DNA of 64,000 nt from Pomphorhynchus laevis. Taxonomy: Eukaryota > Acanthocephala > Palaeacanthocephala > Echinorhynchida > Pomphorhynchidae. The notes beneath the pieces are model-generated. The model searched no databases and was not told the DNA's origin. It was given only the letters and a program-made list of their open reading frames with translations. Position 1 is the first letter of the stretch, and the number at the start of each line of letters is the position of its first letter. Below are positions 11,601 to 17,600 of this stretch, one piece after another. The DNA lies in assembly GCA_012934845.2 (NCBI GenBank), contig WNNJ02001757.1, positions 1 through 64,000 on the forward strand. Reading direction: 5' to 3'. A program made the translations under genes and the position numbers.

Positions 11601-14600
11601 ATATGAGAAAATGATATTTATTTAAACAACTGCATCTTCAAAATCATAAAAATAAATATTTAATATTAAATAAAAGTAAGCATGTATGTGCTTTATTAAG
11701 TTAATGTCATTTCAGGAATTTGTAATAATTGATGATTTTAATTATCAAACTAGTTATAGTTTGATAAACAAGTTATCAGCTACTGATACAATACCTACGT
11801 TTCATGTTTCAGTCCTTTTAATGTTGGCAGAAGATCACTCGAATCGTCTGCTTTTATTGGCGATTAGATTTAATAAAAGACTATTTATCTAACATTTTGA
11901 AAATTTGATTGAAATAATTTCTGATTTCAAATTAAAAATCGTGCATGTTGTCTTAGTAAGCATAATTTCTTGGAATCATTACAACAAAAAATATTTATAA
12001 TGTAAGTTATAATATTTTATGTTGGTCAAATCAACTTTAATATTCGTTTACAAATTTTGACACTTCGAATTAGATCTTTACTCTAAGAGGTTTATATCAA
12101 ACTTAAAAATAAAAAAATCGATACACTTTAATTTTTTAACATTTAAATATGTATTTAAATTAGTATTTAAACATTTCATTAATACTTTCGGTTGAGCAAT
12201 TCCCAAGGCATCAAAAAGTTCTGGATGTTTAACAGGAAGCTCAATAACTTCTTTGATTTCCTTGACTTGTTGATCCAGTCCACCTATCATCTCATAAGTA
12301 CTATCAGGTACCTTTTCAACCATCATCAAGCTAATTAGAGGATCTACCTAAATATACCATAAATATTACAATCCAGCTGTGTAGATAGTAATAGCACCAT
12401 TTAAATAATGTTCGTTTAAACTATTTAACTAACCTTGCTCGGCAGAATTCGGTGTAAAACGTAGCTATCGTTTTTAAGTGCAACACGACAATTTGCAGTT
12501 AATTTGGTTATATCAATCTTTTTATCAACATCTACTACAAATTTACCATCGGGATGAACCTGCAAAACGTGAATGTCAATTAAACAAATTAAACGATGGC
12601 AAATGAATAGTAAATTTTATTGACGTGATAAACAAATAATGAAGAAACTTATATCTAAAGCAACAGATGACATGCATTAGAACATAAGTGCGCTCACTTA
12701 GTAAATTATTTTATCTTAATACATTAATTTAAATTTTTTTTTCAATATTTTTTAATAAATTAATAAATTTACTTCATATTATTTTCATTTTAAATAGTTA
12801 ATAATGATCCATTATTGAAAAATAATTATTGGAGGAATCAAAGGAAATATAATTTTTTAATCAAAATTACAATATAAAATTACAATAAAATATAAAATAT
12901 TATTTTTTGAATATTGTGAATATTGCATACACGAGCCGTTATTCTTAACTGGTCGGTTTGATATTATCCTCGTGTGGTTGTTTGAATCCTATCAGCATCA
13001 CTGTACACTACAATCAGCGTGGGTGGACCTCATCAGCAGTGAGCCCACGCCTACATTTCGTGTTTCGGTCCTTTAACTGCTTCTGCTGATTCCTTGTCGC
13101 CGAAATGCTGGTTTATATTTGGCTTATATACCAAATTACCCAATTAAAGTGTTCTATATTTAGTGTGGGCGGTAACTAGTATTCGCAATTCGAATCCATC
13201 ACACATCGATTTTTTTTATTCCGTTCTTATACGAAATGTTGAATATTAATTTAATATAAAATTTTATATTGTTTTATTTATTAATGTAATTTTATCAGGT
13301 ATCTGTTCTGATTTGTTCGACTAACAAGTTATTATTGACCTGTGGACTTTGTTTTCCGGCAAAATAACTTCTGTCAAAAATACTGAAACTATGTCTTATT
13401 GATACGACATTATTTTTCTGCTTATTTTCAAGCATGTTTAATAAATTATTTATTTTTCTTAATTACTTAATTATTTATTTTTCTTATTTACTTGAATCTA
13501 AAGCAATTAAATAATATAAAATATTGTTAAATATTAAGGATATAAATATTTAATATTTTTGAAAGAAGAAAAGGCATCCAACGACAGAACAGTATTGTTC
13601 TGTCGTTGACAAAACCTTTGTGACAAAACCTTTGCCGTTGACAAAACCTTTGTCGTTGACAAAACCCATTTTGCGGTGACAAACCCTCTGCAAAATGCCT
13701 ACGTTTCCATGGCTGCTAAGATTCCTGGATATGCTGCAGACAGATATGCAGCATGTGTCAAGGACCGAAAATACAAGCGGAAAATGGAGGAAAGTGGGTA
13801 TTGTTTCTCGGCCGCAGTTATAGAGACATATGGAGGTTGGAACGCCCAGGGGGAAAAACTTGTCAGATTCATTGCCCGATCTATGTCTTGGCGAGGCAAT
13901 ATTTCGTATAGCAAGGCGGCAAACCAGCTCTTTCAGCGTGTCTCGATCTCCCTGATGAGAGGGAATGCCAAAGCGATTCTCAAGAGCCTCGAAGATTTGG
14001 GGAGACCTATAATAGAAAGCAGTGTTGGTCTTTACGACGACCCAACCCCGCGTCTCAACTCTTCGGAATTTCTTACTCAGGTGGCAGCCTTATCCGAAGA
14101 AATCGTCATTCGAGAAACCATCCTTCCTACAGTCAGAAATGTGGACATCCATATCAATGATGTCAATCAAAATCTTCGAATCTTACATAGCGGAGGCGTA
14201 CTCGACTTTCAAACTGGGAAAGATGAAAGCCCGATCAAACAGACACCCTCATACCCCACACGCTTACTTGTGACACAGAGTAGTAACACTGAGAACGAGG
14301 GCGTAGTGGCCACGACGAGCGTTATCGGAATAGAACAACCTTGCAATAAAACGAACCTAATAAATTTTGATTGTGAAGGTTGGACTGGACAGAATTTTGT
14401 GATTGCTGGGGACAGTGCGGGCCACAACATCGTGATGTCTGTATTTCTTATGTCAATGAAGAGAGGAATTCGAATACCTGATCGATTATTTGGATTTTGC
14501 CCAGCCTACTGCTTAAGCTCGGGTATTTCACCTAGCCGACTTGTTAGCCTGGTAGGCCCATTTCTTAATTTCAGCGTCATGACGACATGCGAAGAAACAA

Positions 14601-17600
14601 AGGGACTGGGGAAGGTTGTGGTTGCAGGTGGCTTTACTGATGCGCCCAATGTGATAAGGGGAATAAACATGGACACGTTTGACGTCCAGAATACCAGCAT
14701 AATGAGCCGCAAATCTCCTCTTACAATTTGTATAACAAACGAAGAATTGGTGCCAAAATATTTTGAACTGGATGAGCATACATGTGCAGTAGACGCCAAC
14801 GCAGGGTCAATATTGATTTTCGACTATTCAAAAGAATCAAATCAAATTATCAATTCAAATCAAGTAATAGGCGATATTGGAAGCCTCTGCTACCTGGATT
14901 ATACGAAATCACAGCTGTTGTCACTGGATTCAATCCGCCTCGGAGGACCGGGACTGTACGAGATGCCGACAAATATGTGTCCGCGAACGCCACTCAACAG
15001 CCTGCCGAATCCAGCAAGGGGAACGGAAAGACGTCAGAGGCAGAGAAGTCGACGGATGTGGCAGCAACAGAGGAGGACAACGACGCTGTTTTTCTTACCG
15101 CCTCGGAGGACCGTGACTGTACGAAATGCCGACAAATATGTAGACACCTTGCAACAGCTTGCCGAATCCAGCAACGTGGACGGGGAGACGTCAAAGGCAG
15201 ACAAGTCCACGGATAAGGCGGAATCAAAAGAATAGCGACGCTGTTTTAAACTAATTATTGTTTATATTTTTAAAGTTGTTTTATATTGAATATTGTAATC
15301 GCAAAAAAATAAAGAAAAGGCATCCAACGACAGAACAGTATTGTTGTTAAAATCAATAATGTTCTGTCGGGGGATGCCTTTTCTTCTTTCAACAATAATG
15401 TAGACCGACATCCTCGACTCTCTTTCAAATTTAATATTGTATAAATATTTAAAATATTAAATATTTATACATTATTATATAATATTATTTCATATTATTT
15501 TATAATATAAAATATTAAATATTAATATTTGTATAATGAATCGTACACGAAATTATATTCGACATAACATGATAAAAGCATAAATCATAAGAGTTTTATG
15601 TCTATGAGTCTTAGGATGCAAGTCAGCAAATATAATGATTATGGAAACACGATGTCTTAAATAAATGATTGACGACATAAGAAAACATTAATGAGAGTTT
15701 ATCCTCCATTTTAGAAAAATACATAAATATAGAAATCGCAGTTTTCTGAACTGAAAATACAAAAAAACCAAAACTATCAAAATAATTTAAAAAAATCAAT
15801 CACCAAAAAGAATTGCTGTAATTGCGTATTTATAAAACAACGATTATATTTAGATAAATAAATTTGGAAAAATATATTTGGATAAAACTAATACACATGA
15901 ATAGTTTCATTTGAGACTGTACCAGGCGTTAATTATAAATATAGTTGTTGAATATACAAAATAGCATGTATTATCGATAATCTAAATTACAACCGCGGTA
16001 GCTTATAATAAACCTTTATATGAAGTTTATTTAAATTTATTATTATATTATTATTTCATCATAAAAAATACGTCATTAACATTCATTTTGTCTTTCTGAT
16101 ATATTTGCCCCAGTTACTATGTTGGATCAAGTAATATGGGTCAAACCTGATAACATAGCAGTTCCCAATGTTAAGCTCTAATATTAATTCTGACTTATCA
16201 CATGTTATTTATTAGTCAATTTATAAAAATTGACTTGTATTTCAAATTTAAATTTTAAATTTTAACTTGATATAAATACAAATTCTATAAAAACTTACAT
16301 AATTATATTATTTATCTTTATTTTTGATTTATATATAGTATAAAATACGTAGACTTAGTGATCTGGTATGATTTGTTCTACTAACAAGTAATTATTGAAC
16401 TGTGGACTTTGTTTTCCTAGTAATATAACCTCTGTCAAAAACACTGAAACTATGAATATTGCATACACGAGCCGTTATTCTTAACTGGTCGGTTTGATAT
16501 TATCCTCGTGTGGTTGTTTGAATCCTATCAGCATCACTGTACACTACAATCAGCGTGGGTGGACCTCATCAGCAGTGAGCCCACGCCTACATTTCGTGTT
16601 TCGGTCATTTAACTGCTTCTGCTGATTCCTTGTCGCCAAAATGCTGTTTTATATTTGGCTTATATACCAAATTACACAATTAAAGTGTTTTATATTTGGT
16701 TTGGCGGTAACTAGTATTCGCAATTCGAATCCATCACACATCGATTTTTTTTATTCCGTTCTTATACGAAATGTTGAATATTAATTTAATATAAAATTTT
16801 ATATTGTTTTATTTATTAATGTAATTTTATCAGGTATCTGTTCTGATTTGTTCGACTGACAAGTTATTATTGACCTGTTGACTTTGGTTTCCTAGTAATA
16901 TAACCTCTGTCAAAAACACTGAAACTATGTCTTATTGATACGACATTATTTTTCTGCTTATTTTCAAGCATGTTTGATAAATTATTTATTTTTCTTATAA
17001 CGGATAAATATAAATCAATAAAATATTATTAAAATATTAAATTTACAATTTACAAATCATCAAAATATTATAAAAAATTTATTTAAACTATTTAAATAAA
17101 TAGTTAATATATGTTTGATAAAGTTCTTATTTCTATTATTTGAGATAGGAAGAGTAAAGTATTTATTTAATCAATTTTTCACTCGTCACATACGAACTTT
17201 TTCATTATAAGAAATTTTTAAAATCTGAAAAACTTTGCTTTTCAGATTTTAGAAGTTCGTATGTGACGAAAGAAAATGTGATTAAATAAATACTCCCATT
17301 CTTGCTATCTACAATTTATATATAAAATACTGAAACTATGTATAACTGATACGACATTATTATTTTTATTAATCAAAAAAATAATAATTTTTTATTAAAA
17401 ATTAATAAAAAAAAACTTAAATTACAAATTGCATAAACATTGACTTTTAATTTAACTTTCAACTTTAAAAGTTTAAAGTTGAATATTAATGAATTGAAGT
17501 TGATTAATTAAAGTTGAAAGTATTAATTAAAGTTGAAAGTTGAATATGGTTTCGGGCCATATTACTTTGAGTATATGGCCCAAAACCTGATAACACAGCA

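What the first reader, a model, noticed from the sequence alone, without database searches (positions are those of the whole stretch)
13559..15392. TIR element carrying a fusion of a retroelement domain with a hormone-sensitive-lipase piece
A 1.8-kb element with 32-bp inverted ends holds one long ORF. Its N-terminal part is the C-terminal domain of an RT retroelement. Residues 231-305 are the nucleophile block of hormone-sensitive lipase (GDSAGHN, SPSRLVSL). The tail comes from an internal duplication. The ORF is open for over 500 codons and is richer in G and C than the flanking DNA. This looks like exon capture and shuffling of host and retroelement pieces by a non-autonomous DNA element, resting antisense in an intron of an essential gene. 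It may be a new protein in the making or simply debris not yet decayed. The family identifications are from memory of motifs.
Basis: partly seen in the sequence, partly recalled or inferred. Interest (0 to 1): 0.85.

Follow-up and report, generated by a model that had tools for sequence, protein, structure and literature searches.

The report
Jumping gene that captures host exons
In a parasitic worm's genome, a young family of R2-like jumping genes carries pieces of ordinary worm genes stitched in frame onto the end of its own protein, and the piece seen here is one broken copy of that family that landed inside a small unrelated transposon.

Summary
The ORF, lipase piece, retroelement piece and inverted ends are real but belong to two things. 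The inverted ends are a small palindromic repeat (MITE; 115 TIR hits genome-wide). A 5'-truncated copy of an R2-like retrotransposon inserted into it, duplicating 34 bp. The fusion belongs to the retrotransposon: 35 loci carry the lipase piece and 14 an intact 1408-codon frame of reverse transcriptase, endonuclease, lipase exon and probable GAPDH piece; 30 copies differ on average 0.14% from their consensus. Sister subfamilies have other tails there: ubiquilin, its UBA end, or an unidentified one. The genome is very probably Pomphorhynchus laevis (Acanthocephala). The lipase piece starts at a host exon start; the ubiquilin piece too, inferred from the preceding exon's splice donor; the GAPDH piece ends at an exon end but starts inside one. 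I infer that element RNA is spliced to host exons and the chimera retrotransposed, founding new subfamilies. Two distant unnamed relatives end with an AAA ATPase part and an MLLE domain. No use of the tails for the element is shown. The window copy lies antisense in a PSMC5 intron.

The parts
13559..13599 (.). Left part of the MITE (inverted arm 13559-13597); 13566-13599 is the left copy of the 34-bp target-site duplication
   Evidence: Inverted match 36 of 39 to 15354-15392 and exact direct repeat of 15312-15345; TIR pattern with up to 3 mismatches hits 53 times forward and 62 reverse in the genome, 0 for the reversed control
13600..13660 (.). Filler at the 5' junction: stuttered copies of TTGACAAAACCTTTG-like units
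   Evidence: Direct-repeat family D3; absent from the full-length element at this point
13661..15311 (+). 5'-truncated copy of the R2-like retrotransposon, subfamily A
   Evidence: Window 13668-15247 (up to 15299 in C2226) matches many genomic copies at about 100%; full-length copies L059, L060
13676..14122 (+). ORF residues 1-149: end of the reverse transcriptase/endonuclease core, 64-66% identical in subfamily B
   Evidence: structural match of a homologue to R2 proteins through the endonuclease
14123..14377 (+). ORF residues 150-234: linker, shared in part with family C; origin of its end unknown
14378..14596 (+). ORF residues 235-307: one exon of hormone-sensitive lipase (nucleophile elbow GDSAG)
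   Evidence: 8zvq 4.3e-11; host exon C240:58841-59056, 57% identical, same start
14597..14706 (+). ORF residues 308-344: probable piece of a GAPDH exon, ending at the host exon end
   Evidence: PDB GAPDH 1.8e-4 with this part alone (2 of 28 hits under 0.05, all 28 named GAPDH); host exon end in L080; only 25% identical to the host's own GAPDH
14707..15235 (+). ORF tail with internal duplication; another frame shows a very weak carboxypeptidase N/D-like stretch (E 0.4)
15236..15311 (+). 3' UTR, one of at least two alternative 3' UTRs of subfamily A
15312..15392 (.). Right part of the MITE; 15312-15345 is the right copy of the duplication, 15354-15392 the inverted arm
8645..12568 (-). Downstream exons of the host gene PSMC5 (Rpt6): 12568-12419, 12347-12186, 11405-10822 (two frames), 8835-8645
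19244..19547 (-). Upstream exons of PSMC5: 19547-19491 and 19345-19244; the retroelement lies in the intron between 19244 and 12568

Best explanation
The window holds a 5'-truncated, so dead, copy of a young R2-like (restriction-like-endonuclease, RLE) non-LTR retrotransposon that inserted into a MITE, itself lying in a PSMC5 intron. The full element encodes one protein: zinc finger (by eye), reverse transcriptase, RLE, linker, then a host-derived tail in frame. Tails differ between subfamilies of the same genome: HSL exon plus probable GAPDH piece (A); ubiquilin from its exon 3 on (B); the UBA end of B on an A core (A'); unidentified (C). Proposed mechanism: RNA from an element copy (inserted in the host gene, or in trans) is spliced onto downstream host exons. 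The chimeric, intron-free RNA is retrotransposed by the element's own machinery and founds a new subfamily. Later, element RNAs recombine and swap tails. Shown: the element family, the alternative tails, the identity of the HSL and ubiquilin pieces, the HSL start at an exon start, the A/B tail swap. Inferred: the ubiquilin exon-3 start (exon 3 itself was not read), splicing as the joining step, how tails are swapped, and any function of the tails.
Against: No splice donor was found on the element side, and residues 195-233 have no known origin. Ubiquilin exon 3 and the exon before the HSL exon were not read; the host ubiquilin gene matched its own model P0121 only at 85-97% per piece with 36 extra bases. 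The GAPDH start lies inside a host exon, and the piece is only 25% identical to the host's GAPDH. SNPs among copies are neutral-like (25 N, 11 S, 2 stop), so no selection on the tail is shown. An old B copy differs from a young one equally at the three codon positions (23/20/22). Of 11 loci tested for flanking duplications (one cut off at its 5' end, two with an approximate 5' end) only the window copy has a long one; L055 has 12 nt, placed 45 b off. No older HSL-bearing copies were found although the piece is only 57% identical to the host gene, so capture in another species and horizontal arrival remain possible.
Confidence: 0.66

Rival explanations
1. The host pieces were joined by the reverse transcriptase jumping between element RNA and already spliced host mRNAs during target-primed reverse transcription; exon borders coincide by chance or by pausing.
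For: The A' subfamily is an end swap between two element RNAs. Copies end at varied 3' positions and have at least two alternative 3' UTRs, so the enzyme starts and may switch loosely. LINE template jumps that fuse two or three transcripts are described in Magnaporthe (PMC2104539, abstract seen). The A' and P0028 tails end in domains that sit at the C-terminus of their host proteins (recalled), as mRNA 3' ends would.
Against: Jumps onto mRNA need not respect exon borders, yet four of five borders compared (HSL start, HSL end to within a few codons, GAPDH end, ubiquilin start) lie at or next to exon borders and only the GAPDH start does not. The HSL and GAPDH pieces are internal to their mRNAs.
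Confidence: 0.25
2. The chimeric element was assembled in another species, from that species' genes, and reached this genome recently by horizontal transfer.
For: HSL-bearing copies are all at least 97% identical (35 of 35) while the HSL piece is 57% and the GAPDH piece 25% identical to the host's genes; no intermediate HSL-bearing copies were found.
Against: The A core has decayed relatives in the same genome (four loci, 56-61% over residues 1-200 to 1-226); ubiquilin-bearing copies of several ages are present, and A' combines A with the local B.
Confidence: 0.2
3. The tails are passive passengers: captured RNA that happens to stay open, with no function for the element.
For: Neutral-like SNPs among copies; the GAPDH piece has lost conserved residues; no complete lipase domain is present.
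Against: The HSL piece differs from the host exon at 66% of third codon positions but only 21-30% of first and second and shows no clear acceleration relative to human HSL (6 against 4 unique changes); the tail of about 285 codons has stayed open. Both could also reflect divergence before capture. Host-type tails recur in the same place in two distant relatives.
Confidence: 0.5
4. One reading: exon capture by a non-autonomous TIR DNA element.
For: Inverted arms do bound the stretch.
Against: 34-bp duplication inside the arms, ORF found in full elsewhere without the arms, and another copy of the MITE without the ORF.
Confidence: 0.01

Closest known systems
R2-type RLE LINEs (R2, NeSL, Utopia)
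   Same: RT followed by a C-terminal zinc finger and RLE; structural match of a homologue through the RLE. The layout zinc finger(s)-RT-zinc finger-RLE, and an extra N-terminal Ulp1-like protease in some nematode families, are described for Utopia and NeSL (PMC4640811, passages seen).
   Different: Here extra host-derived coding sequence follows the RLE at the C-terminus and differs between subfamilies of one genome; no common target sequence was seen in the flanks read.
LINE-1 chimeras with spliced mRNAs (Law and Burns 2026, PMC13174262; passages and one section seen)
   Same: Host exons joined to a LINE, with splice sites at many junctions, then retrotransposed.
   Different: There host exons sit at the 5' end in 17 individual human insertions; here they are inside the element's ORF at its 3' end and have been amplified as subfamilies.
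Magnaporthe LINE-mediated bipartite and tripartite retro-chimeras (PMC2104539, abstract and outline seen)
   Same: Fusion of two or three transcripts by a LINE enzyme.
   Different: Those combine a non-coding RNA, a SINE and a LINE, not a LINE with an ORF extended by host exons.
Turmoil-1 transduplication in C. elegans (PMC2572040, abstract and findings section seen) and animal Pack-TIR elements (PMC8277862, listing seen)
   Same: Transposable elements carrying host coding fragments in an animal genome.
   Different: DNA transposons; in Turmoil-1 the fragments sit in the inverted repeats, not in a retrotransposon ORF.
LINE-1 3' transduction with exon shuffling (recalled; no call)
   Same: Downstream host sequence carried along at the 3' end of a LINE.
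   Different: Usually one-off passengers; here in frame and inherited by a subfamily.

Membership tests
R2-like RLE non-LTR retrotransposon | Reverse transcriptase of LINE type | tested here: met
   RVT_1 1.5e-16 in L060; best PDB hits R2 proteins, 2.3e-7 (L062)
R2-like RLE non-LTR retrotransposon | C-terminal CCHC zinc finger and PD-(D/E)XK endonuclease after the RT | tested here: met
   In 40 aligned relatives C676, C690, H700 and D744 (P0003 numbers) are invariant, C673, H686, R732, P733 and D735 at least 90% conserved; the model of P0003 aligns through R2Bm residue 1107. Tested on homologue P0003, not on the window family itself; the window copy lacks the first part of the domain.
R2-like RLE non-LTR retrotransposon | 5'-truncated copies, target-site duplication | tested here: inconclusive
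   5'-truncated copies occur; 34-bp duplication in the window copy, but no clear one in the other 10 loci tested
R2 clade proper | Site-specific insertion in 28S rDNA | tested here: not met
   The window copy sits in a MITE and the 3' flanks of the other read copies differ from one another; flanks were not searched for rDNA one by one. Filed as R2-like, not as R2
Non-autonomous TIR DNA element with captured exons (Pack-TIR) | Captured sequence lies between TIRs in several copies | tested here: not met
   39 matches outside the window's contig start at query position 110 or later and end at 1741 or earlier, without the arms; MITE copy L003 has no such ORF
Hormone-sensitive lipase | Nucleophile elbow GDSAG | tested here: met
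   alignment
Hormone-sensitive lipase | Complete catalytic domain (oxyanion motif, Asp and His of the triad; recalled) | tested here: not met
   Only 73 residues, one exon, match
Ubiquilin (tail of subfamilies B and A') | STI1-type domain and C-terminal UBA | tested here: met
   PF23195 3.2e-18 in B; UBA end in A'; the UBA end of A' matches B copy L072 at 94% DNA identity over 327 nt
Ubiquilin (tail of subfamilies B and A') | N-terminal ubiquitin-like domain | tested here: not met
   Homology to P0121 starts at residue 128, after that domain: a fragment, not a ubiquilin

The most novel reading that the evidence does not exclude
A LINE lineage whose protein has a swappable C-terminal cassette: it repeatedly acquires exact host exons by splicing (lipase, GAPDH, ubiquilin here; a proteasome-type ATPase part and a PABP-type MLLE domain in distant relatives), keeps them in frame as part of the protein that drives its own spread, and exchanges them between subfamilies. 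The ubiquilin, ATPase and MLLE tails would let the element dock to ubiquitin, proteasome or translation machinery: domestication in reverse, the transposon recruiting host domains.
Probability: 0.3. Interest if true: 0.88.

Novelty: new variant of a known kind. Interest (0 to 1): 0.72.

Why it matters
Transposons donating domains to hosts is well known; the reverse flow, host exons built into the coding region of an amplifying LINE, is rarely documented in animals as far as I know. Here one genome holds several such subfamilies side by side, young enough for junctions to be read to the base, so the mode of capture (splicing against template jumping) and the use of the captured domains become directly testable. 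Copies of the ubiquilin piece also show up in annotated host protein models next to unrelated domains (P0123, P0130), a warning for gene annotation and a possible route back into host genes.

Tried and rejected
TIR element as carrier: rejected by the nested 34-bp duplication and by the genomic copies. A shared GTCAA at the A/A'/B join, which I had read off an alignment, was not borne out when checked: A reads GATGTCAATC, A' GATGTCCAACC, B AATAGTCAACC; at most one base is shared. Carboxypeptidase-like stretch in another frame: the only three hits are carboxypeptidases but E is 0.43-1.3, and no host carboxypeptidase match was seen among 81 matches in the genome; left as a hint. Tail of family C: nothing convincing in Pfam, nothing in PDB. 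Residues 308-440: apart from element copies only two matches at E 8.7, with 35 of 37 scored in element copies. Selection from SNPs among copies: uninformative, neutral-like; old against young B copy: flat over codon positions. dS for HSL is saturated (NG86 gave dN 0.34, dS undefined; YN00 gave nothing). Other proteins with the HSL/GAPDH tail: none under E 0.01 among 2686 candidates of suitable length. Rfam on the window: nothing. NCBIfam on the 1408-aa protein: nothing. C962 was fetched as a possible host ubiquilin but is an old element copy. Pfam on 8 relatives: only RVT_1. Of 120 listed relatives (408 under 1e-20) 119 gave an alignment; 104 align through the endonuclease, 10 of these have tails of 100 aa or more, 9 of the 10 were scanned with Pfam, and 2 have a recognised extra domain in the tail. 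Literature: the searches listed no paper that, by title and start of abstract, reports an R2-like element with ubiquilin or lipase exons; the library holds open-licence papers only and the listings were capped.
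Full report
WHAT IS THERE. The ORF 13676-15235 (519 aa) is real and much richer in G+C (46.7%) than its flanks (24-26%). It lies between inverted arms 13559-13597 and 15354-15392 (36 of 39 matching). The right arm belongs to a compact palindrome, 15312-15385, whose first 34 bases are repeated exactly at 13566-13599. The TIR pattern with up to 3 mismatches occurs 115 times in the genome (53 forward, 62 reverse; 0 in the reversed control), in several places as close inverted pairs; L003 is such a MITE with the same ends. 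So the ORF-bearing stretch was inserted into a MITE and duplicated 34 bases of it. At its 5' junction is a 61-base filler of stuttered units; the element proper starts at about 13661, in the middle of the full-length element's frame.

HOST PIECES IN THE TAIL. Residues 235-307 are hormone-sensitive lipase (4.3e-11). The genome has two such genes; the piece is 57% identical to the exon in C240 and 42% to that in C2663. The C240 exon reads ...tttcag|GTTGGACAGGA...TTAAAAG|gttaga, and the homology of the captured piece starts at this exon's first, split glycine codon and ends at most a few codons from its end. First, second and third codon positions are 70%, 79% and 34% identical: the divergence was mostly under protein constraint, but where it accrued, in the donor or in the element, cannot be told. 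Against human HSL the captured piece is not clearly faster than the host exon (6 against 4 unique changes). Residues 308-344 resemble GAPDH (0.0049 in the whole ORF; 1.8e-4 alone, where all 28 hits up to E 10 are GAPDH but only 2 are under 0.05). They are only 25% identical to the host's GAPDH exon (8 of 32). The similarity ends where the host exon ends, TTAAG|GTATAT, short of the active-site motif. I call this one probable.

OTHER TAILS AT THE SAME PLACE. Subfamily A' (17 loci matching residues 1-165 at 98%; two read, L061 and L062) is identical to A up to GATGTC and then has another end that matches UBA domains (six hits, 7.6e-5 to 0.016, four named ubiquilin). Subfamily B (64-66% identical over residues 1-149) has a long ubiquilin tail: PF23195 at 3.2e-18, 197 of 326 columns identical to the host's own ubiquilin P0121. 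PF23195 finds 224 candidates in the genome; 150 were scored and all 150 pass the cut-off, 24 of them in frames of 1000 or more codons. That each of the 150 is an element copy was not checked; eight B loci and one old copy were read. The A' end is 94-98% identical to B ends although the cores are only about 65% alike, so tails are exchanged between subfamilies; the join lies between two codons and shares at most one base with B. Family C (four loci read, all interrupted) has a third tail that neither Pfam nor PDB identifies. Subfamily A itself has at least two alternative 3' UTRs after the stop and varied 3' ends.

EXON BORDERS. The host ubiquilin gene lies on C1375, minus strand: matches at 74145-74252 and, in one open frame, 68514-68636 and 68394-68477. 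The latter exon ends ...KPPTTQ with ACACAG|GTAATT. In P0121 the next residues are VSQQPNIDQHT; B's homology starts there (LISLQPNIDQHT; in the older copy L081 LISQQPNIDQHT). So the ubiquilin capture starts at the first codon of the next exon, on the assumption that the gene model P0121 is right; that exon was not read. HSL starts at an exon start, and GAPDH ends at an exon end; the GAPDH start lies inside a host exon. With exons of 70-120 codons, two independent starts within two codons of an exon start would be a chance of a few per thousand (my estimate, no call). This favours splicing of element RNA to host exons, in cis or trans, before retrotransposition. The same logic, with host exons on the 5' side, has been proposed for human LINE-1 (PMC13174262, one section read). 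No donor site was recognised on the element side.

RELATIVES ELSEWHERE. Of 120 listed relatives (of 408 under 1e-20), the closest, P0001 (44% identical over 97% of the query, on a 4852-base contig), ends after the endonuclease with part of an AAA ATPase (4.6e-26; proteasome Rpt3 by my recollection); P0028 ends with an MLLE domain (4.9e-13). Ten of 104 relatives aligned through the endonuclease have tails of at least 100 aa. C-terminal host-type pieces thus recur but are not the rule.

THE GENOME. The ubiquilin search returned Pomphorhynchus laevis proteins up to 99% identical to B over part of it (P0124, 29% of the query). P0121 lies on a contig of 120,943 bases, the length of C1375. Size and G+C also fit the published draft (260.3 Mb, 32.9%, 4,021 contigs, LINE-rich; PMC7310846, passages read; here 249.4 Mb in 3242 contigs, window 33.2%). 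I take the genome to be P. laevis. The window copy is antisense in the intron between PSMC5 exons at 19244 and 12568.

JUDGEMENT. That this is an R2-like element with a lipase exon in its ORF is about as certain as sequence can make it. Splicing as the way of capture is the best reading of the borders but rests on few cases. Function of the tails is open: the HSL piece is not a whole enzyme, while a UBA or STI1 piece could act alone.

Noticed in passing
P0123, P0130; host loci not in the window: Annotated P. laevis proteins combine the element's ubiquilin piece (98% and 91% identical over part) with unrelated host domains (PI3/4-kinase, methyltransferase): exonised element copies or gene-model errors.
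   Followed up: no
window 10822-11405 (-): The PSMC5 AAA exon reads in two frames (11405-11238 and 11202-10822), suggesting a small assembly error or a tiny intron.
   Followed up: no
G000:C725:37261-45038: Tandem ubiquitin-like repeats (polyubiquitin-like) in 452- and 465-codon frames.
   Followed up: no
window 30043-30537, 34019-36918, 38988-42888 and 56192-57164: Several other retroelement ORFs: CR1-like LINEs and a Penelope-like fragment (by eye, recalled; no search made).
   Followed up: no
P0001, P0009, P0050, P0054: Relatives of the RT core carry extra N-terminal domains: PHD, primase-polymerase, SAND, PDZ.
   Followed up: partly
L069-L071, L074 (family C): A third, unidentified tail, with an open piece of 230 codons in L069, in four interrupted copies.
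   Followed up: partly
window 13600-13660: Filler of several stuttered units of about 18 bases at the 5' junction of the insertion, as slippage during second-strand synthesis might leave.
   Followed up: no
L026 (G000:C482), 3' flank: A subfamily A copy ends close to what looks by eye like a tRNA gene on the opposite strand.
   Followed up: no
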